A program made the translations under genes and the position numbers. The notes beneath the pieces were generated by a model that did not search any database, was not told the DNA's origin, and saw only the letters and a list, made by a program, of their open reading frames with translations. From an uncultured Chitinophaga sp. (lineage in GTDB: Bacteria; Bacteroidota; Bacteroidia; Cytophagales; Cyclobacteriaceae): a stretch of 64,000 bases of DNA. This document shows positions 54,386 through 64,000 of the stretch, piece after piece (the stretch's first letter is position 1; the number at the start of each line of letters is the position of its first letter). The stretch lies in the NCBI GenBank assembly GCA_902168205.1, contig CABHOK010000007.1:124001-188000 (forward strand), given 5' to 3'.

Positions 54386-55759
54386 ATGTCTGCTAACATT
54401 TTGTTGAACGATACTATTGTAGCATTGGCTACTGCACAAGGTTTATCTGCTATCGCGGTGATCAGACTTTCCGGAGAAGATGCTATAGCCATTACACAAA
54501 AAGTATTTAAGGGCAAGAATCTCCTGGAGCAGCCTTCGCATACCGTTCATTTCGGATTACTGCACGATGAAGCAAAAACCATTGACGAAGTACTCGTTAC
54601 TATATTTAAAGCTCCTAACTCTTTTACTAAGGAAAACAGTACCGAAATATCGTGTCACGGCTCACCGGTTATTGTAAAAGAGATTATCAAAGTATTGCTG
54701 AAGAACGGGGCGCGTTTGGCAGAACCCGGTGAATTTACCAAGCGTGCTTTTCTCCACGGACGATTTGATCTCGCGCAGGCCGAAGCGGTCGCGGATCTCA
54801 TCAATGCGGAAACAGATAATGCGCGACAGGCAGCGCTCAACCAGATGCGTGGTGGTTTTTCAAAAGAGATCAGCATTCTTCGTGAAGAGCTTATACACTT
54901 CGCTTCGCTCATCGAACTCGAACTCGACTTTGGTGAAGAAGATGTTGAGTTTGCCAAACGTGACGATCTGAAAAAACTCATTAAGCGTATACAGGCATAT
55001 TTACTTCCGTTGATACAGTCGTTCGATGAAGGCAACGTTATCAAGAATGGTGTACCTACCGTTATAGCGGGTAAACCAAATGCTGGTAAATCTACGTTAC
55101 TAAATACATTACTGAACGAAGAGAAGGCAATCGTATCCGATATACCGGGAACAACGCGCGATGTTATTGAAGATGAAATGGTATTGGGAGGTATAAATTT
55201 TCGTTTCATTGACACCGCTGGTCTTCGCGAAACCCAGGATGTTATCGAAGCAATTGGTGTAGAACGCACGCGCGATCGCATGAAGAAAGCTTCGCTGATT
55301 ATATACCTGTTCGATCTCACACAAACTACATTAGCCGAAATCATCAACGAAGAAGAACACCTGGCATCATTAGGTATACCCTATATTAAAGTCGGCAATA
55401 AAGTAGATAAAGCAGACGCTTCCCTTGTGGAAGAACTGAAAAAGCACGACTTCATTTTTATCAGTGCATCGCACAAAACAAATATAGTGGAGCTTAAAGA
55501 CAAGATACTCGCTTCGTTCCAGGTGAAGACCGTAAAGGCAGGCGATGTACTGGTAACAAACCTTCGTCACTATCAAAACCTGCTACAAACCAACGATGCA
55601 CTCGACCGTGTCCTCGAAAGTATGTACAACGGAGTGACTGGTGATTTTCTCGCAATGGACATCCGCCAATCCCTACACTATCTCGGTGAAATAACCGGTA
55701 CCATCACTACCGATGATCTGCTGGATAATATATTCTCGAAGTTTTGTATCGGGAAATGA
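54386..55759 (+). CDS. mnmE: tRNA modification GTPase MnmE (TrmE)
   Basis: With MnmG it installs the carboxymethylaminomethyl group on the wobble uridine of certain tRNAs. The N-terminal formyl-THF binding domain (ILLNDTIVALATAQGLSAIAV, NSFTKENSTEISCHGSP), the G domain with GKPNAGKSTL, DIPGTTRD, DTAGLRE and NKVD, and the C-terminal Cys in FCIGK are all intact. At 457 aa it is normal. Its 3' end is the insertion point of the mobile element that follows, and the coding end is preserved. Confidence 0.98.
   Translation: MSANILLNDTIVALATAQGLSAIAVIRLSGEDAIAITQKVFKGKNLLEQPSHTVHFGLLHDEAKTIDEVLVTIFKAPNSFTKENSTEISCHGSPVIVKEIIKVLLKNGARLAEPGEFTKRAFLHGRFDLAQAEAVADLINAETDNARQAALNQMRGGFSKEISILREELIHFASLIELELDFGEEDVEFAKRDDLKKLIKRIQAYLLPLIQSFDEGNVIKNGVPTVIAGKPNAGKSTLLNTLLNEEKAIVSDIPGTTRDVIEDEMVLGGINFRFIDTAGLRETQDVIEAIGVERTRDRMKKASLIIYLFDLTQTTLAEIINEEEHLASLGIPYIKVGNKVDKADASLVEELKKHDFIFISASHKTNIVELKDKILASFQVKTVKAGDVLVTNLRHYQNLLQTNDALDRVLESMYNGVTGDFLAMDIRQSLHYLGEITGTITTDDLLDNIFSKFCIGK
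55742..55759 (+). other. Candidate left attachment site (attL) at the 3' end of mnmE
   Basis: TTTTGTATCGGGAAATGA, the last 18 nt of mnmE, corresponds to the segment used as attachment site by SGI1-like islands in Enterobacteria (encoding FCIGK-stop). A second copy should mark the right end, outside this window. Confidence 0.45.
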
Positions 55760-55878
55760 CTTCCCTAAACATCCCTAACAAAATCGCAATAACCCTTTAT
55801 TAGTCAGTGCGTTACCAAAAGTAAGTCTGGGGATTCTTCGGCATCTTTAAGGCTTGTTTAGGTACTTTTTGTTACTGG

Positions 55879-55918
55879 TTTGTTACTCGAATTCCTGAAG
55901 CGGTTTACGAGTAACAAA
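55879..55918. repeat. Perfect inverted repeat near the element's left end
   Basis: TTTGTTACTCG (55879-55889) and CGAGTAACAAA (55908-55918) are exact inverse complements around an 18-nt centre. A nearby TTTTTGTTACT (55868-55878) repeats the left arm. The spacing suits a recombinase core or accessory-protein site. Confidence 0.75.
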
Positions 55919-55950
55919 AAAGTTGTGTCAGGTGTATTCGTGTCTCGCGT

Positions 55951-55990
55951 AGGCACAACCTGGCACATCTAGGCACAAGTAGACACGTAC
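55951..55990 (+). repeat. Four phased 10-bp repeats (iterons)
   Basis: AGGCACAACC, TGGCACATCT, AGGCACAAGT and AGACACGTAC follow each other with an exact 10-bp period, sharing the core GGCACA. Inverted relatives (TTGTGTCAGG, TCGTGTCTCG) lie just upstream. One-turn phasing is typical of cooperative protein binding, such as recombinase arm sites or repressor sites. They end 4 nt before the first gene of the element. Confidence 0.75.
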
Positions 55991-55994
55991 TGAC

Positions 55995-56363
55995 ATGAAT
56001 ACAAAAATTCCAATCCAGAAGGTTTGTGAGTTCTGTGGGAACAAATTCACAGCCCAAAAGCTATCAACACGATTCTGCTCTAACAGATGTTCCAGCAGGA
56101 ATTACAAGCTGGTCGAGCGGCAGCAGAAGACTGCGTCCAACAATGAAAAGTTAATCGACACTAACTTATCAAAAACGCCCCTCGAACTATTACTCAACAG
56201 CAATCAGGAATACTTCGATGTTGATGAGGCTGCAACGATCATGCGGATTAGCCGAAGAACATTGTACCGGCTGATCGCATTGAAGAAAATCAAAAAGAAA
56301 AAATTACTATCAAGAACAATCATTCTAAAGGACGATATCAAATCATTTTTTGCCAAACAATAA
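55995..56363 (+). CDS. Zinc-finger plus excisionase-type HTH protein
   Basis: The 122-aa protein starts with a treble-clef-like zinc motif (VCEFCGNKFTAQ then RFCSNRCSSRNYK; Cys pairs at about residues 11/14 and 28/32). The C-terminus has a MerR/excisionase HTH (EYFDVDEAATIMRISRRTLY, RLIALKKIKKKKLLSRTII). It stands directly behind the phased repeats and 12 nt before the integrase gene on the same strand, so it may be a recombination directionality factor or repressor of the integrase. The function is inferred. Confidence 0.78.
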   Translation: MNTKIPIQKVCEFCGNKFTAQKLSTRFCSNRCSSRNYKLVERQQKTASNNEKLIDTNLSKTPLELLLNSNQEYFDVDEAATIMRISRRTLYRLIALKKIKKKKLLSRTIILKDDIKSFFAKQ

Positions 56364-56375
56364 AATAAGACGGCT

Positions 56376-57509
56376 ATGAAGAAGAAGGAAAAGCAAAGAA
56401 AGGAACCCATCAAAATCCGTGAGAAAAGACTTGCTAACGGCAGCGTAAGTTTATACCTCGACATTTACTGGCGGGGTGATCGCGAATACGAGTTTTTAAA
56501 TCTCTACCTAACTCCCCCTAAAACTACAGTTGACCGTGAACAAAATAATCAAACCTTACTCCTGGCCGAACAAATTAAATCGCAGCGATTGCTCGATTTG
56601 CAGTCAGGCAAATACAAACTCAAGCAGGCAAAGCAAGACTCAAGCTTCGTTGAGTACATGAAAAAATGCGCGAATGATCGCCTTAGCAGCAAGGGCAACT
56701 TCGGAAACTGGGATAGCGCACTACGGCATCTCGCAATTTTCACAAAAGGAAAGGATGTGTTCTTTAGTGAAATTGATGAGACATGGCTTCTGGACCTCAA
56801 ACATTATCTCCTCAATGAAGCAAAGACTCCAGGCAACTCAAAGCTCAGTCAAAATTCAGCGCACTCATATTTTAACAAAGTAAAGGCTACGCTCCGTCAA
56901 GCGTTTGAAGAAAAATACATCAATGAAAATCCTGCTACGAGGATCCGAGGGATAAAGCAAGCCGAGACGAAACGCGAATTCTTAACATGGGAAGAGGTAG
57001 AAATGATTACAAAACAACCCTGTGACGCAACAAAATTGAAAGAAGCTTTTTTGTTCAGTATAATGACGGGTCTAAGGTGGTCAGACATCGTGAAAATGAA
57101 ATGGTCAGAAGTTAGAGGCAGTAAGGCAGCCGGATGGTACGTCCAGTTCCAACAACAGAAAACAAAAGACCATGAAGTATTACCAATTACGCAGGAAGCG
57201 AGAGAACTCATGGGAAAGGCTAAAGCCCCGGACGAAAGAGTCTTTATTGGTCTGCGATACAGCTCAAAAACAAACGTTGCTCTCGCGCGATGGTTGGCAA
57301 AGGCAGGTATTACTAGACCGATAACATTCCACTGCGGACGTCACACTCACGCTACTCTCCTACTATCTCAGGGTGTTGATATCTACGTAGTCTCAAAACT
57401 ATTGGGTCATAAGACGATCAAGACCACGGAGATTTATGCGAAAGTAAGCAACATCAAGAAACAGGAAGCAGTGAACAAACTACCCAAGCTTAAAATCTCT
57501 CAAGTATAA
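56376..57509 (+). CDS. Tyrosine recombinase (integrase), intact
   Basis: The 377-aa Bacteroidota-type integrase has an N-terminal arm-binding part, a SAM-like core-binding domain (FVEYMKKCANDRLSSKGN, DLKHYLLNEAKTPGNSKLSQ) and a catalytic domain. All catalytic residues are readable: Arg in TGLRWSD, Lys in QQQKTKD, HxxR in FHCGRHTHAT, the third His in LLGHK and the Tyr nucleophile in EIYAKV. It should excise and integrate the element at mnmE. The next gene is a paralogue that has lost these residues. Confidence 0.95.
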   Translation: MKKKEKQRKEPIKIREKRLANGSVSLYLDIYWRGDREYEFLNLYLTPPKTTVDREQNNQTLLLAEQIKSQRLLDLQSGKYKLKQAKQDSSFVEYMKKCANDRLSSKGNFGNWDSALRHLAIFTKGKDVFFSEIDETWLLDLKHYLLNEAKTPGNSKLSQNSAHSYFNKVKATLRQAFEEKYINENPATRIRGIKQAETKREFLTWEEVEMITKQPCDATKLKEAFLFSIMTGLRWSDIVKMKWSEVRGSKAAGWYVQFQQQKTKDHEVLPITQEARELMGKAKAPDERVFIGLRYSSKTNVALARWLAKAGITRPITFHCGRHTHATLLLSQGVDIYVVSKLLGHKTIKTTEIYAKVSNIKKQEAVNKLPKLKISQV

Positions 57510-57526
57510 CTGAACAAGGCAATAGC

Positions 57527-58348
57527 ATGAAGAAAGAGAAAGCATCAACCGCGAAAGAATTCAAATCATTCTTTAACCAAATCATGCGCGACCGGGAAAC
57601 TCGCAATTTGTCGGTATTTAACTATGACATGGCTCTTAGATATTTGAAAAGGTTTTCTGACGGCAAAGACATTCCAATGAAATCCATCAATCAAACGTGG
57701 GCTGTATTGTTCCAACAGTTCCTGATGACGACATCAACTTTCAAGAACGAAAAGAAACTCAGTACGGCTTCGGCACGTCAATATTATTACATCGTTACAA
57801 GTGTGATCAGGGTCGGGATCGATTTATCATATATCCAAGCGGATGCCCTTAAGGGATGCAAATTTGCTAAAACCGTAAAGGGGTCAATTGAACCGCTATC
57901 ACTTGATCAGCTTCAGAATCTCGCTAAAGCCGAATGCGATTCGTTAGTATTAAAGAAAGCATTTTTATTCAGTGCACTGACCGGCATGCCGTGGAAGGAA
58001 ATTTCATCATTGAGGTGGAAGCAGGTTGAAAAATACAACATCGGATCGATTTCGGTACACTGTGAAGACTCATCACGAAGTGTTCCATTAAATCAACAAG
58101 CTTTTAAACTGCTAGGAGAAACAGGCGCTGAAGGTGAAAGAGTGTTCGAATTGAAATGGAACTCGTATCTCTACATCAACCTTAACAAGTGGGCAATTCG
58201 TGCAGGCATTTTAACGAACATTAAATTTGAGACAGCACGAATAACTTTCGCACACATGCTTCACAAGCAAGGCGTTCCAATTGAACTTATCTCAGAATTG
58301 ATGGGACACAAAAACATCAAATCGACATTGCGAATAACTCAAGGATAA
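57527..58348 (+). CDS. Tyrosine-recombinase-like protein, catalytically degenerate
   Basis: The 273-aa protein aligns end to end with the core-binding and catalytic domains of the preceding integrase. The motifs differ: TGLRWSD is TGMPWKE (Arg lost), FHCGR is FETAR (His lost, Arg kept), the beta-Lys hairpin reads HCEDSSRSVP, MGHK keeps its His, and the Tyr position (EIYAKV) is LRITQG. The frame is open and clean, so it looks selected for rather than decayed. It may act as a partner, inhibitor or directionality factor. It starts 17 nt after the integrase stop and ends 7 nt from the convergent HTH gene. Confidence 0.9.
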   Translation: MKKEKASTAKEFKSFFNQIMRDRETRNLSVFNYDMALRYLKRFSDGKDIPMKSINQTWAVLFQQFLMTTSTFKNEKKLSTASARQYYYIVTSVIRVGIDLSYIQADALKGCKFAKTVKGSIEPLSLDQLQNLAKAECDSLVLKKAFLFSALTGMPWKEISSLRWKQVEKYNIGSISVHCEDSSRSVPLNQQAFKLLGETGAEGERVFELKWNSYLYINLNKWAIRAGILTNIKFETARITFAHMLHKQGVPIELISELMGHKNIKSTLRITQG

Positions 58349-58355
58349 GTTTCTT

Positions 58356-58682
58356 CTATTTCTTAGAACCAAACCGGGTTGCCGCCTCCTTTCGGATCTC
58401 GTGGATTGTCTTTACTCTGCGAGATTCGACCCAGGCAAGCAGCTCAGATTTCTTAAACATGATCTTCTTCCCATGCTTATAGTGAGGGATAATCTTTTCG
58501 GAGGTTTTCTCGTAGACGGTGGTAACCGCAAGATTCAACAGCGCAGCCGCCTCCTGTATGTTAATTAGTGTGCTTTCATTTTCAGAGACAATCTTCCCTT
58601 CCGACAAGATTTCCGTCAGTGTCTCCTTGAGCAGAGATTTAAACTCATCCCGGCTGAATTGAAATATCATCGGTGAATCCAT
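58356..58682 (-). CDS. Excisionase-family HTH protein
   Basis: The 108-aa protein has a charged N-terminal helix (FSRDEFKSLLKETLTEILSE) and an HTH_17-type winged HTH (LINIQEAAALLNLAVTTVYE, YKHGKKIMFKKSELLAWVES). Such small proteins are common next to integrases in Bacteroidota mobile elements and act as excisionase or regulator. TTG 58691 precedes; ATG 58682 is chosen (ATG 58670 also possible). Confidence 0.85.
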   Translation of the reverse strand: MDSPMIFQFSRDEFKSLLKETLTEILSEGKIVSENESTLINIQEAAALLNLAVTTVYEKTSEKIIPHYKHGKKIMFKKSELLAWVESRRVKTIHEIRKEAATRFGSKK

Positions 58683-58868
58683 AAGCTTCAATCATTTACA
58701 TACGAATTTGAGATCCTCGATCAGGGAAAGCTACACAGTTGGTACCCACGTTGGGAAAAAAAATCGGGGCTAGCGGCCTTGAAATCGACTAAAATCATGA
58801 AATTCTATAAGCTCAACCGACAATTGTATAATAGTCAACAATTCAAATTGGCGATCTTTGGCGAACCT

Positions 58869-59447
58869 ATGACAACTCTTTACATCAAGAACATGGTATG
58901 CAACCGATGCATTATGGTTGTAACGCAGGAATTGGAAAGGCATGGCCTTCATCCGGAAAAAGTCTCGCTGGGAGAAGTCACGATAAAAGAAGATAGCTTG
59001 ACTGATGACCAGCAGAATAAGCTAGATGCCTCACTTGTCCATCTAGGATTTGAGAGAATCGATGATCGAAAGGCACGCCTTATAGAATCAATCAAGAATA
59101 AGATCATTCAAATGATCCATCATTCCGATAAGGTCGATCTGAAAGTTAACTGGTCGACACTTCTGTCGGATGAAATGCACTATGAATACAATTATCTAAG
59201 CAATCTATTTTCGAGTGTTGAAGGAGTAACTGTTGAACAATACATCATCAAGCAAAAAATAGAAAAGGTTAAAGAATTACTTTTCTATGATGAACTCAGC
59301 TTAAGTGAAATCGCGGATAAGCTCGGATACAGTAGTGTCGCTCACCTTTCAGGTCAGTTCAAAAAGATCACCGGGTTCACTCCTTCTGAGATGAAAAAGT
59401 CCAGGGACATCGATCAAAACAGAAAACCTCTCGATTCGGTTTCTTAA
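58869..59447 (+). CDS. HMA-like metal-binding domain fused to AraC-type HTH, copy 1
   Basis: The 192-aa regulator has an N-terminal HMA-like domain of about 70 residues with MVCNRC (Cys11 and Cys14) and the strand-helix pattern of copper chaperones. The linker is helical (LIESIKNKIIQMIHH) and the C-terminus carries an AraC/XylS HTH (about 120-185; YIIKQKIEKVKELLFYDELS, LSEIADKLGYSSVAHLSGQF). It would sense Cu(I) or a similar soft metal and activate the adjacent copA. TTG 58779 and ATG 58797 precede; ATG 58869 aligns with the paralogue. It is tandem with copy 2. Confidence 0.85.
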   Translation: MTTLYIKNMVCNRCIMVVTQELERHGLHPEKVSLGEVTIKEDSLTDDQQNKLDASLVHLGFERIDDRKARLIESIKNKIIQMIHHSDKVDLKVNWSTLLSDEMHYEYNYLSNLFSSVEGVTVEQYIIKQKIEKVKELLFYDELSLSEIADKLGYSSVAHLSGQFKKITGFTPSEMKKSRDIDQNRKPLDSVS

Positions 59448-59526
59448 AACTCTGTAAGCCTTTCCGGCAATTTTATAAATTCAAACGATCTATATCTCAC
59501 GTTCTTTGATCTATAATCAAAAGCTC

Positions 59527-60108
59527 ATGACATCCGAGATATCAATAAAGGGCATGGTCTGCGAAAGGTGTGTTTCCGTCATCAGAGAAGGAATCACGAA
59601 ACTTGGATATGACGTTGCTAAAGTCAATCTTGGCAAATTGTTTCTCAAATCCGAAATTGATAGTGACGGACATCATCGCATTGAACTGTTCCTCGCTGAA
59701 AATGGATTTGAAATGATTTCAAACCGTCAGGTCAGAATCGTGAATCAGGCAAAAGAATTAATAAGCGAAGTATTTGGGCAAAATGTAAAGTATGATGCTA
59801 AGCTTAAATTCTCTTCGCTACTCTCGGAAAAACTTCACATGAATTATGATTCCATCAGTGAGTTATTCACTGACCTTGAAGGAATCACACTTGAGAAATA
59901 TATCATTACGAAGCGCCTTGAGAAGGTCAAGGAGCTTCTCGTTTACACCGAATTTACCCTGACCGAGATCGCGTACATAACTGGGTTTAGTAGCATCAAT
60001 CATCTCTCCAGGCAGTTCAAAGAATTGACGGGTTTTTCTCCTTCGCATTTCAAGGAAGTCAGATCTTCGAAGCAAAAGCTGTCTGGTAAAATCAACGCCA
60101 ATCTTTAA
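59527..60108 (+). CDS. HMA-like metal-binding domain fused to AraC-type HTH, copy 2
   Basis: The 193-aa paralogue of the preceding regulator has the same order: ISIKGMVCERC (Cys12 and Cys15) then an HMA-like fold, a linker and an AraC HTH (YIITKRLEKVKELLVYTEFT, LTEIAYITGFSSINHLSRQF). Divergence from copy 1 is broad, so the duplication is not recent. The two may respond to different metals or form heterodimers. TTG 59506 precedes; ATG 59527 is chosen by alignment. It lies 64 nt before a small membrane-protein gene and upstream of copA. Confidence 0.85.
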   Translation: MTSEISIKGMVCERCVSVIREGITKLGYDVAKVNLGKLFLKSEIDSDGHHRIELFLAENGFEMISNRQVRIVNQAKELISEVFGQNVKYDAKLKFSSLLSEKLHMNYDSISELFTDLEGITLEKYIITKRLEKVKELLVYTEFTLTEIAYITGFSSINHLSRQFKELTGFSPSHFKEVRSSKQKLSGKINANL

Positions 60109-60171
60109 ATCATATAAACCTTACCCCGAAAAGTGCAAACCACTGGCTGAATCATCCGTGTTAATTGCACT

Positions 60172-60309
60172 ATGATTACAAAGATTTACAAAGCAATGAT
60201 AGTAGCTGGAAGCGTAACTGCGGTAGTCATTATTTCCTACTATCTGAATTTTCCCATTGATATGAAATCCATCAGCATTTATCTAAAAACGAAGATGCAT
60301 GTTGGTTAA
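60172..60309 (+). CDS. Small single-TM protein, 45 aa
   Basis: The frame encodes 45 residues with one hydrophobic segment (AMIVAGSVTAVVIISYYL, residues 8-25) and a basic tail (KTKMHVG). It lies between the second regulator and copA. A TATAAA word 59 nt before the ATG and a GTGCAA word 20 nt further on recur before the other small gene at 62803, supporting a real gene. It may be an accessory subunit of the copper pump; this is an inference. Confidence 0.55.
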   Translation: MITKIYKAMIVAGSVTAVVIISYYLNFPIDMKSISIYLKTKMHVG

Positions 60310-60426
60310 ATACCTGTCAAAATCAGTCGACAGTTAGCCGGAAATCATATAAATGAAAGAGGCTAAAGTATAAAACGAAAAGAAGCCCCATGGTGTAGTA
60401 TTGTAGCAACGTAAAGACAAAAGAAA

Positions 60427-62679
60427 ATGTCAACAGCAGCAATAGAAGTTAAAAAAGCCGCCAACGGCCAATATAAAAAAGAAACATTCCCGGTTCTTGA
60501 AATGACATGTGCCGCTTGTGCGGTAAGTGTTGAGTCAATGCTCAAATCAACAGCGGGAGTCAAAGACGCAAGAGTCAACTATGCGAATCAAACCGCCTCG
60601 GTGGAGTATGATGCAAAACAAACGAAGCCTTCTGACCTACAGAATTCTGTAAGAGCTATTGGCTACGATTTGGTTGTCGATGTAGAAGATCCACAAGCCG
60701 TTCAGGAAGAAGCGCAGCGCAAACATTATGATGCCGTTAAGCAACGCACGATCTGGTCTATTATCCTTTCAATACCAGTTGTGGTGATCGGAATGTTTTT
60801 CATGGACATGCCTTATGGAACGTACATTTCAATGGTGTTGACAGCACCCGTTGTATTCTACTTTGGACGCAACTTCTTCGTTAACGCCTGGAAACAAGCC
60901 AGACACGGAAAAGCAAACATGGATACGCTTGTAGCATTGTCCACTGGAATTGCATTTGTGTTTAGTGTGTTCAACACATTCTTCCCTGACTTCTGGCACA
61001 CAAAGGGTATGCACGCTCACGTCTACTTTGAGGCGGCTGCTGTAGTGGTGGCATTTATCTCGCTGGGGAAACTTCTGGAAGAAAAAGCAAAATCAAACAC
61101 CTCATCCGCCATAAAGAAACTGATGGGACTTCAGCCAAAAACGGTTAGAGCAATCATCGATGGCGTTGAACAAGAAATTCCAATCGCTGTTGTGAAGGTG
61201 GGTTATAAACTTCAAGTAAGACCTGGAGAAAAAATTCCAGTTGATGGTGTCGTTTTAAGCGGGTCTTCTTATGTTGATGAAAGCATGATCTCCGGTGAGC
61301 CTGTGGCTGTTGAAAAGAAAGCAGGAGAGAAAGTGTTTGCCGGAACAATCAATCAAAAAGGAAGTTTTCAATTTGAAGCGGAAAAAGTAGGTGGCGATAC
61401 AATCCTTGCACAAATCATTAAAATGGTGCAGCAAGCACAAGGTAGCAAAGCACCTGTGCAGAAGCTCGTTGACAAAATCGCAGGAATCTTCGTTCCCATT
61501 GTTATAGGCATTGCTATTCTGACTTTCATTACATGGATGGTGATTGGAGGAGACAATGCCTTCACCTATGCTCTACTTAATTCAGTCACCGTTCTTGTGA
61601 TCGCTTGTCCTTGTGCGCTTGGGTTAGCTACGCCCACTGCCATCATGGTCGGAGTTGGCAAGGGTGCCGAAAATAACATTCTCATTAAGGATGCAGAAAG
61701 CCTTGAGCTTGCTCATAAAGTAAATGCAGTAATCCTTGACAAAACAGGAACAATCACCGAAGGCAAGCCTGTCGTAACAGATTTCGAATGGTCGACACCT
61801 GGCGCAAACTCAATTGAAAAGAAGATTTTATTCACCCTTGAATCTCAGTCTGAACACCCTCTGGCTGAAGCTGTAGTTAATAGTCTGAAATCCGAAGTGA
61901 TCAATTCCATCACACTGGATTCCTTCGAGAGCATTACCGCACGTGGTGTGAAGGGAAGCGTAGATGCCAAAACATATTTTGTCGGTAACAGAAAATTGAT
62001 CGATGAAAATAACATCAGCGTTTCCAACCATATTTTGGATCTCGCACTAAAGTCACAGTCCGAGGCGAAAACTGTGGTATACTTCTCGGACACGAAAAGT
62101 GTTTTGGCAGTTATTGCTATTGCTGATAAAATAAAATCGACATCTAAAGCCGCGATCAACTCTCTTCAAAAGAAAGGAATTGATGTGTACATGCTGACTG
62201 GCGATAATGAACAAACCGCAAAGGCAGTGGCAAGTCAGGTCGGACTGAAACATTACAAAGCGGAAGTATTGCCTTCAGACAAAGCTCAATTCGTGAAAGA
62301 ACTCCAGGCCAAAGGTAAAGTTGTTGCAATGGTTGGTGACGGAATCAATGATTCACACGCTCTTGCGGAAGCCGATGTAAGTATCGCGATGGGTAAAGGT
62401 TCTGACATTGCTATGGACGTGGCCAAAATGACTTTGATAACATCAGACCTTCAGTCCATTCCAAAAGCATTGAACCTATCAACCAAGACCGTGATGGGAA
62501 TAAAACAGAATCTTTTCTGGGCGTTCATCTACAACGTCATCGGTATTCCAATCGCTGCAGGAGTGTTGTATCCGGTAAACGGTTTCTTACTTGATCCGAT
62601 GATTGCCGGTGCTGCAATGGCCATGAGTTCCGTAAGCGTGGTTGGCAATAGTTTAAGATTGCGATCTGCTAAAATATAA
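60427..62679 (+). CDS. copA: Copper-translocating P-type ATPase
   Basis: This 750-aa P1B-1 ATPase exports Cu(I). The N-terminal HMA domain has MTCAAC (Cys28 and Cys31). Eight TM helices include the CPC motif (394-396, VIACPCALG). The phosphorylation site is DKTGTI (Asp438); the actuator TGE-type loop reads SGEP and the hinge [22 protein letters not shown]. In the nucleotide-binding domain the conserved HP is [12 protein letters not shown]. The downstream TM pair has [15 protein letters not shown] and [12 protein letters not shown], as in CopA. A terminator follows at once. Confidence 0.97.
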
Positions 62680-62687
62680 ACCTCTTG

Positions 62688-62715
62688 AAAGCCTGGCTAA
62701 GTCGTCAGGCTTTTC
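62688..62715 (+). terminator. Terminator after copA
   Basis: AAAGCCTG pairs with CAGGCTTT around a 10-nt loop and is followed by TTTT. It lies 8 nt after the copA stop. Confidence 0.75.
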
Positions 62716-62802
62716 ATTTATAACATTCTTGGAATAGTATAAATCAAACAGGGTATAGTGCAACAGAGATCGCGCATGCACCAATTAATTTTGATTCATC
62801 AA

Positions 62803-62886
62803 ATGAAATCAAGTGCAAAAATAGCGGTTCTGGTTTTGGGCGTTGTAGTCGCTGCAGTTTGTGCTATAACGATACTAGTTCCGTAA
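62803..62886 (+). CDS. Small single-TM protein, 27 aa
   Basis: A 27-residue frame made almost entirely of one membrane helix (KIAVLVLGVVVAAVCAITIL) with a Lys-containing N-terminus. It sits between copA and a broken ferredoxin-reductase gene, and its upstream region shares TATAAA-N14-GTGCAA with the gene at 60172. It is too short for routine calling; coding status is plausible but unproven. Confidence 0.45.
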   Translation: MKSSAKIAVLVLGVVVAAVCAITILVP

Positions 62887-62897
62887 AATCCTCGCTC

Positions 62898-63946
62898 ATG
62901 GAATTACAAGTTTTACGCATTTCAAAACCCACAGACGATTCTGTTTCAGTATGGTTTAAAAGGGATTCAAACCTGATCAGTTATATATCTGGTCAACATG
63001 GTATTTTTTCTTTCTCAATCGGTGAAAAGCGATTTAATCGCACGTACTCCTTTCACACCTCTCCACAGGTTGACGATGAAGTAGCGATCACTGTCCGGCT
63101 GTTGAAGGTGGATTCGTATCAAACTTTCTGGCGAACACCTCACATGACGAAATAAAAATTGAACTTGAAAAGATCGAAGGAGGATTTACGCTTGAACCGT
63201 CTCAAGATGTAAAGCGCCATCTGATTATGTTTGCCGGTGGCAGTGGCATCACTCCTATTTTTTCAATGATTCGTTCTTTGCTGTACGGTGAACCAAGATC
63301 AACAGTGTCATTGATCTATTCGAATAAAACATATCACAAAATCATATTCAATAGAGAGCTGAATACTCTGCAAGCTGAATTTCCAAAGCGGCTGAGAGTA
63401 TATCATGTCATCACCCAAGATGACAATATTCCCGCTGAGTTCCCGGTCTTTTACAAGGGAAGGCTTTCGAAGCTGATTGCAAAGAAAATCCTCAAGACGA
63501 TCCTAGCCGAAGCGAATTATCACGTTGAATATTATCTCTGCGGGCCACATTCATTCATGCAGCTGATTGAGGAAGTCATTCGGTCGGTTAGCGAGGATCA
63601 TTTGAAAATACACAAGGAACATTTCTTTATTCCAAATCAAGAGCCAGTCTTTGATCCCACTGTTTTTCCTGATCGCGAAATTATCCTTCACGTAAAGAAT
63701 GAAGAACGACTTCTCACTGTAAAAAGTGGAAAATCAATCTTGCAGGCGTCACTCGAAAGTGGAATTCAGGTGCCATACTCCTGCATTGAAGGTCAATGCG
63801 GCACCTGCCGGGCGAAGCTGATCAGTGGCGAAGTTAAGCTAAGGAAAAATCATATTCTGACGGAAGACGAGCTAAAGGATGGACAGATTCTTCTTTGCCA
63901 GGGATTTCCTGCTTCTGATGGAATTACGATCCGAACCAGCTTATAA
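62898..63946 (+). pseudogene. Ferredoxin reductase-like flavoprotein with 2Fe-2S domain, frameshifted
   Basis: Two frames together give one PaaE/ring-hydroxylase-reductase-like protein of about 349 aa. The first part (from ATG 62898) holds the FAD-binding RTYSFHTSP motif. Near 63105 the frame shifts: as written it runs to a stop at 63155, while the next frame continues with GGFVSNFLANTSHDE and the NAD-binding FAGGSGITPIFSMIR. The C-terminal plant-type ferredoxin domain has CIEGQCGTC and a later LLCQG (four Cys ligands). One missing base, probably A in TTGAAGGTGG, explains it. It could supply electrons for metal or redox chemistry with copA. It may be a real pseudogene or an assembly indel. 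Confidence 0.85.
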
Positions 63947-64000
63947 TTATATAAATCGTCCCAGCTATAATATAAAGCAAAAAGACCCCTCCGGACGTTT

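What the first reader, a model, noticed from the sequence alone, without database searches (positions are those of the whole stretch)
55742..64000. Copper island integrated at the 3' end of mnmE/trmE in a Bacteroidota genome
The element begins directly after the mnmE stop, with an integrase nearby, and the end of mnmE reads TTTTGTATCGGGAAATGA. SGI1 and related islands in Gammaproteobacteria use the corresponding 18 nt of trmE as attachment site (established knowledge). The same target in a distant phylum, with an unrelated Bacteroidota-type integrase, suggests convergent choice of a conserved, tolerant gene end. Cargo is copA and novel-looking regulators.
Basis: partly seen in the sequence, partly recalled or inferred. 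Interest (0 to 1): 0.7.

Follow-up and report, generated by a model that had tools for sequence, protein, structure and literature searches.

The report
Copper ICE in mnmE gene end
The copper genes sit at the left end of a 90-kilobase element, probably self-transferring, inserted in the last codons of the tRNA-modification gene mnmE, a spot that a related group of integrases uses in many Bacteroidota.

Summary
Confirmed and extended. The boundary at window 55742 is exact. The contig continues past the window and holds the predicted second copy of the mnmE end at C7:269484, 89.7 kb on, then two more at 277816 and 283502, same strand. The reported piece is the left 9% of a probable integrative and conjugative element (ICE): transfer genes, relaxase, coupling protein, copper and other metal genes, CBASS and Lamassu-like genes. 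Two smaller site-bounded segments follow (103.8 kb in all). A collinear 121-kb relative with nearly the same ends lies at mnmE in another genus; in G004 a site copy abuts the same chromosomal AraC-type gene.

The choice is general: of 80 named loci with related integrases, 77 lie directly behind mnmE and 79 have the site; 0 of 20 other integrases of the same Pfam family do. Counter-evidence: G036, with seven site patterns in 80 kb, showed no such integrase there. SGI1 uses the same gene end in Gammaproteobacteria; independent origin was not tested. New detail: a second integrase gene lacks catalytic residues in three hosts yet shows purifying selection between two of them. Eight literature searches showed no Bacteroidota case. 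Excision and transfer are inferred.

The parts
54386..55759 (+). mnmE (trmE), intact; its last six codons (stop included) form the attachment site
   Evidence: mnmE found in 53 of 59 genomes searched, own included
55742..55759 (+). attL, TTTTGTATCGGGAAATGA (FCIGK-stop); first 11 bases identical in the copies at C7:269484, 277816, 283502
55763..55776 (.). CCCTAAACATCCCT, left-end motif; CTAAACATCCCT of it recurs inverted (AGGGATGTTTAG) before the right att of E1
55869..55886 (.). two TTGTTAC heptamers 11 bp apart (55869, 55880), inverted copy at 55911; a like pair lies 57 and 46 bp before the right att with an inverted copy at 122 bp: probable arm-type integrase sites (inference)
   Evidence: some direct heptamer pair in 57 of 79 related left ends vs 11.2 expected from single-base shuffles, which do not keep dinucleotides, and 10 of the 57 are CTTTTTT
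55995..56363 (+). 122-aa protein, Cys-rich N-terminus and HTH_17 (excisionase-like, below the NCBIfam cut-off); a homolog stands before the integrase in most of the 80 named loci
56376..57509 (+). Int1, tyrosine recombinase with Arm-DNA-bind_5, SAM_5 and catalytic domains; catalytic R, H-xx-R, H and Y present
57527..58348 (+). Int2, paralog without arm domain and without the catalytic first Arg, first His and Tyr
58356..58691 (-). 111-aa HTH_17 protein, excisionase-family match above cut-off; 96% and 87% identical in G111 and G006
58779..59447 (+). AraC-type regulator with N-terminal CxxC (MVCNRC) stretch
59506..60108 (+). second AraC-type regulator of the same kind (39% identical); sub-cut-off CopZ match at its N-terminus
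60427..62679 (+). copA, copper-type P1B ATPase with one HMA domain
62859..63946 (+). reductase-like gene in two ORFs (62859-63155; 63227-63946); NAD-binding plus 2Fe-2S ferredoxin domain in the second

Best explanation
Window 55742 is the left end (attL) of an 89.7-kb ICE, C7:179742-269501. Int1 recombined an 18-bp site carried by the circular element with the end of the host's mnmE. The ICE supplies the last codons and stop, so MnmE keeps its FCIGK end and the host loses nothing. Exchange most likely fell between positions 6 and 12 of the 18 bp. The ICE carries relaxase, coupling protein and type IV secretion genes and should transfer itself; copper, other metal and phage-defence genes are cargo. 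Each insertion rebuilds a usable site at mnmE, so further elements can stack there: here three site-bounded segments in tandem. Shown by sequence: both ends, site copies, transfer genes, a collinear relative in another genus, integrase-site linkage in many Bacteroidota. Inferred: excision, circularisation, conjugation, the arm-site role of the heptamers, the directionality-factor role of the HTH_17 proteins.
For: Four same-strand site copies and no others on 534 kb of C7. TraM, TraJ, TraG, TraN, coupling protein, MobC and a MobB-like relaxase. G111 (another genus) has a 121.4-kb collinear element between two site copies with nearly the same terminal sequences. In G004 a perfect site copy lies 131.6 kb behind mnmE and 54 bp before a stretch 80% identical to the AraC-type gene that abuts the last site here. 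In G021 a right-end sequence with a site lies 27 kb before the same gene, same strand. 77 of 80 named Int1 relatives follow an MnmE C-terminus and 79 of 80 have the site pattern; 0 of 20 other PF13102 integrases have it within 1.5 kb. Family: 207 pattern hits vs 12 for the reversed control in 118 genomes; among 149 hits entered, 31 same-strand against 2 opposite neighbour pairs within 200 kb.
Against: No empty mnmE-AraC site was found in the nine relatives searched, and in G002 that gene lies on another contig than mnmE. The G004 and G001 left ends keep only the small HTH gene, so occupancy there is a relic. The two copies bounding E1 differ at 3 of 18 positions. E3 is a mosaic with a transposase gene. 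G036 and G117, the genomes with the most site patterns near mnmE, have no PF13102 integrase in the array at E <= 1e-8, and the first 8 kb behind mnmE in G036 shows two-component and ABC-transporter-like genes, by my reading, not an integrase. No read or experimental data on excision.
Confidence: 0.92

Rival explanations
1. The far copies of the mnmE end are chance look-alikes and the region is an ordinary metal-resistance region.
For: With 3 mismatches the genome holds 22 hits; two strict-type hits lie elsewhere in the genome; G+C differs little (E1 41.9%, left flank 44.2%).
Against: The strict pattern has only four hits on 534 kb of C7, all +, each far copy preceded by the same kind of right-end sequence, and the same pair bounds a collinear element in G111.
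Confidence: 0.02
2. It is a decayed, immobile relic rather than a working ICE.
For: I saw no integrase among the listed ORFs of E2 and E3; E3 holds a transposase gene and partial copper genes; left ends in G004 and G001 are relics.
Against: E1 has both ends and uninterrupted integrase, relaxase, coupling and secretion ORFs; G000-G111 dN/dS is 0.020 for Int1.
Confidence: 0.16
3. Int2 is an active second recombinase that works with Int1, as in tyrosine-recombinase pairs.
For: Adjacent, intact, same fold class; a 'Tyr duo' class is named in PMC5704250 (passages).
Against: The catalytic Arg is P, A or Q, the first His E, E or Q, and the Tyr has no counterpart in all three hosts.
Confidence: 0.03
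4. The Bacteroidota and SGI1 integrases share one ancestral trmE-targeting integrase, so the shared site is inheritance, not convergence.
For: Same gene end, nearly the same 18 bp (E. coli TTCTGTATTGGTAAGTAA).
Against: Int1 has Arm-DNA-bind_5 and SAM_5; SAM_5 was found in 2 of 14 control genomes, Bacillus subtilis and Bacteroides ihuae. That SGI1 Int is built differently is recalled, not tested.
Confidence: 0.12

Closest known systems
Bacteroidota conjugative transposons (CTnDOT-like, MPF-B ICEs; class names recalled)
   Same: TraJ and TraN pass the NCBIfam Bac_Flav_CT cut-offs; TraM, TraG, MobB-like relaxase, coupling protein, SAM_5-type integrase
   Different: Site is the end of mnmE; copper and defence cargo; extra non-catalytic integrase paralog
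SGI1 and MGIVchHai6 (trmE islands of Gammaproteobacteria)
   Same: Tyrosine recombinase, 3' end of trmE/mnmE as site (PMC5704250 and PMC8409611, passages)
   Different: SGI1 is mobilised by IncA and IncC plasmids; this element has its own transfer genes
dusA-specific integrase family (PMC4482086; only the start of the abstract in a search listing)
   Same: One integrase family tied to one conserved tRNA-modification gene in many bacteria
   Different: Uses the 5' end of dusA

Membership tests
Integrative and conjugative element (ICE) | Flanking direct-repeat sites with an integrase gene at one end | tested here: met
Integrative and conjugative element (ICE) | Relaxase and coupling protein | tested here: met
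   Relaxase PF03432 and T4SS-DNA_transf above cut-off; the MobB model is matched below its cut-off, 288.8 vs 400 bits
Integrative and conjugative element (ICE) | Own type IV secretion genes | tested here: met
   TraG, TraJ, TraM, TraN
Integrative and conjugative element (ICE) | Excision, circular form, conjugative transfer | not testable with these tools
   no reads, no experiments
SGI1-type trmE island | Integration at the 3' end of trmE/mnmE | tested here: met
SGI1-type trmE island | SGI1-type integrase and xis | not tested
   no SGI1 sequence could be obtained
SGI1-type trmE island | Depends on an IncA or IncC plasmid for transfer, no full transfer system of its own | tested here: not met
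   Bacteroidota transfer genes present
CTnDOT family proper | IntDOT-type site and regulatory genes | not tested
   only transfer genes were compared, by family models

The most novel reading that the evidence does not exclude
A clade of mnmE-specific integrases spread over Bacteroidota makes one tRNA-modification gene a standing docking site, where ICEs and defence-bearing segments stack in tandem. In the lineage of this window a duplicated integrase gave up catalysis and became a protein that binds the att sites or Int1 and steers direction or blocks competitors: a recombination factor derived from a recombinase.
Probability: 0.38. Interest if true: 0.72.

Novelty: new variant of a known kind. 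Interest (0 to 1): 0.6.

Why it matters
It gives a sequence rule for finding both ends of some mobile elements in Bacteroidota, and shows that the gene end used by the multidrug island SGI1 is also a common docking site in a distant phylum. Metal and phage-defence genes move with it. The non-catalytic integrase paralog is a testable case of a recombinase turned accessory factor.

Tried and rejected
Chance repeats: rejected. tRNA gene as the site: ARAGORN found none in L005-L007 and L018-L021. Chromosomal right flank from relatives: gene order behind mnmE is not conserved in the genus; G004 gave the shared AraC-type flank. My first scans of relatives did not turn minus-strand loci round; redone, and the first versions are used only for the inverted site in G003. 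SGI1-type integrase through E. coli: 5374 of 5426 genomes matched the mnmE end and 4596 over 80% of the query; 4 of the broken ones were viewed and held another insertion without an annotated integrase. E. coli could not be used as a search centre. Further Int2 genes: in 118 family genomes only G000 and G111 have a close match, the other hits (26-34% identity) being Int1-like; in 291 order genomes nothing but the window's own lies below E 1e-60; G006 is the third known. Regulators as novelty: dropped. Foldseek matches of the Int2 model are many but loose (in the 50 listed, TM by query 0.41-0.48, rmsd 8-16) and support the fold class only. A third job type (VIA-align) was not used.
Full report
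1. The observation. mnmE at window 54386-55759 ends in TTTTGTATCGGGAAATGA, encoding FCIGK and a stop. The window is C7:124001-188000 of a genome of 7.3 Mb in 20 contigs. I read on to the end of that contig. A pattern that accepts any spelling of FCIGK-stop has four hits on both strands of C7:177000-711179, all on +: 179742 (mnmE itself), 269484, 277816 and 283502. A looser search with three mismatches had shown the 269484 copy among 22 genome-wide hits. With TRR as the last codon the whole genome has six hits, two of them elsewhere (C5:44003, C14:373846).

2. The element (E1). Between 179742 and 269501 lie 89.7 kb. Left end: a small Cys/HTH_17 protein, Int1 (Arm-DNA-bind_5, SAM_5, catalytic domain), Int2, an HTH_17 gene on the other strand, two AraC-type regulators and copA. 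Further on, Pfam names a split AcrB/CusA-type pump, an outer-membrane efflux protein, a CusB-type protein and a multicopper oxidase; other P-type ATPases and metal genes are my reading of ORF translations. The transfer region holds TraN, TraM, TraJ, TraG, a coupling protein, a MobB-like relaxase and MobC. Before the right end stand CBASS-type genes (two cyclases, E2, 4TM effector); a Lamassu LmuB match lies inside the transfer region. This looks like an ICE; the reported 8.3 kb is its left end.

3. The array. The stretches before all three far copies share GGGATGTTTAG, a pair of TTGTTAC-like heptamers (TTGTTGC at 277816; one heptamer changed at 283502) and about 45 bp before the site. The left end has the motif inverted and a like heptamer pair. 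Segment 2 (8.3 kb) holds an Xre/RES toxin-antitoxin-type pair, an Avs-like NTPase match and a SMEK-domain protein. Segment 3 (5.7 kb) begins with 39 bp of the chromosomal flank (one mismatch), then an rve-type transposase gene and partial metal genes related to E1 and G111: a mosaic that suggests an earlier copper element at the same site.

4. Independent hosts. G111, another genus of the family, has a collinear element of 121.4 kb between two site copies. Identities: Int1 94%, small HTH proteins 92% and 96%, Int2 75%, copA 89%, TraN 69%, TraM 75%, TraJ 91%, TraG 92%, coupling protein 79%, relaxase 63%, MobC 47%; its terminal sequences are nearly the same, and several E1 genes have no match there, the CBASS ones among them. 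G004, same genus, has a perfect site copy 131.6 kb behind mnmE, 54 bp before a stretch 80% identical to the AraC-type gene that abuts the last copy here. In G021 a right-end sequence with a site lies on C14 27 kb before that gene, with mnmE on another contig; in G002 the gene is on another contig than mnmE, without a site in the 20 kb read. No empty site was found.

5. Where the exchange falls. In G111 the two copies differ at position 6 (C in attL, T in attR), 15, 17 and 18; here at 12, 17 and 18. Positions 7-11 agree in both pairs. If no later mutation intervened, strands were exchanged between 6 and 12.

6. Generality. A search with four Int1 relatives kept the best 80 of 532 confirmed named loci, itself a capped list. 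In 77 of 80 an MnmE C-terminus lies upstream and in 79 of 80 the site pattern does, 204-727 bp before the integrase match; of the three without mnmE, two begin at a contig edge. The titles name Flavobacteriales, Bacteroidales, Sphingobacteriales and genera that I recall as Cytophagales and Chitinophagales. Of 26 PF13102 matches in six genomes, three are mnmE-site Int1, two Int2, one a 128-aa fragment that I dropped; of the other 20, 0 have the pattern within 1.5 kb. In a quick tree of 66 rows, 44 mnmE-site integrases (41 of the 80 plus window, G111, G040) are one side of a branch with SH-aLRT 88, below the 95 mark, and the program warned of long branches. Of 30 genomes whose region behind mnmE I read (own included; 53 had mnmE), 9 have an Int1 homolog and 12 the small HTH gene or Int1 within about 1.5 kb. 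In 118 family genomes the pattern has 207 hits against 12 for the reversed control, and 57 genomes have two or more. Part of these are stray: of 149 hits entered, the neighbour pairs within 200 kb are 31 same-strand and 2 opposite. Over the phylum 236 of 247 genomes have a hit; by my count of the table 196 have exactly one and 40 two or more, so stacking is not universal. G036 has seven patterns in 80 kb, G117 four in 56 kb; neither has a PF13102 integrase there, so those arrays are not explained by this integrase.

7. Int2. Aligned with Int1, Int2 lacks the catalytic Arg (P here, A in G111, Q in G006), first His (E, E, Q) and the Tyr; the second Arg and the last His remain. The catalytic residues of Int1 align with those of an archaeal Xer (4a8e). 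Int2 is an intact ORF in all three hosts. Between G000 and G111 dN/dS is 0.094 for Int2 and 0.020 for Int1 (dS 1.67 and 1.66, near saturation; one pair, Nei-Gojobori). A model from 7 sequences has mean pLDDT 83, pTM 0.60, and matches tyrosine recombinases loosely. I read it as a retained non-catalytic factor; its role is a guess.

8. Prior knowledge. PMC5704250 (passages) lists SGI1 and MGIVchHai6 at the 3' end of trmE, and PMC8409611 (passages) treats SGI1 at trmE in Gammaproteobacteria. Eight searches on the site listed no paper that, from title, abstract start or passages seen, describes mnmE/trmE as a site in Bacteroidota; most listed papers were not opened. Two more searches, on the regulators and on inactive recombinases, listed nothing on point. 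One Bacteroidota island paper read in passages (PMC6764341) uses an Arg-tRNA gene. Most subscription papers are missing from that library, so the site may be known elsewhere.

9. Verdict. ICEs are a known kind; the mnmE-linked Bacteroidota integrase clade and the non-catalytic paralog make it a new variant.

Noticed in passing
L006:1-2710, L006:3327-6545, L020:3301-6455 (beyond the window): CusA-type pumps are each split into two ORFs near the same place in both E1 copies and in E3; one pair covers Pfam ACR_tran positions 2-415 and 416-1019 exactly. Matching ORF pairs exist in G111.
   Followed up: partly
L087 (G007:C13): 1.19 kb behind mnmE a second site is preceded by a duplicated MnmE C-terminus (84-99 aa aligned), as if an element carried a longer gene end.
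   Followed up: no
L075 (G003:C42): An inverted site preceded by codons for IFSK lies upstream of mnmE, perhaps a trace of an inversion through att sites.
   Followed up: no
L089 (G036:C1) and G117:C1:425982-481732: Seven and four same-strand site patterns near mnmE without a PF13102 integrase there; origin unexplained.
   Followed up: partly
window 58779-60108: Two AraC-type regulators with an N-terminal MVCxRC stretch beside copA; relatives on Bacteroidota plasmids. Possible copper sensors.
   Followed up: partly
C3:1253434-1256139 of the same genome (L002, L003): A second copA-like locus with a matching stretch next to it, 68-72% DNA identity to the window, without a site pattern in L002.
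   Followed up: no
MT837961.1 (L277): A fecal 'Bacteriophage sp.' record holds mnmE with the site and an Int1 relative behind it; probably host DNA or a prophage edge.
   Followed up: partly
window 62859-63946: The reductase-like gene is in two ORFs here and matches two adjacent pieces in G111.
   Followed up: no
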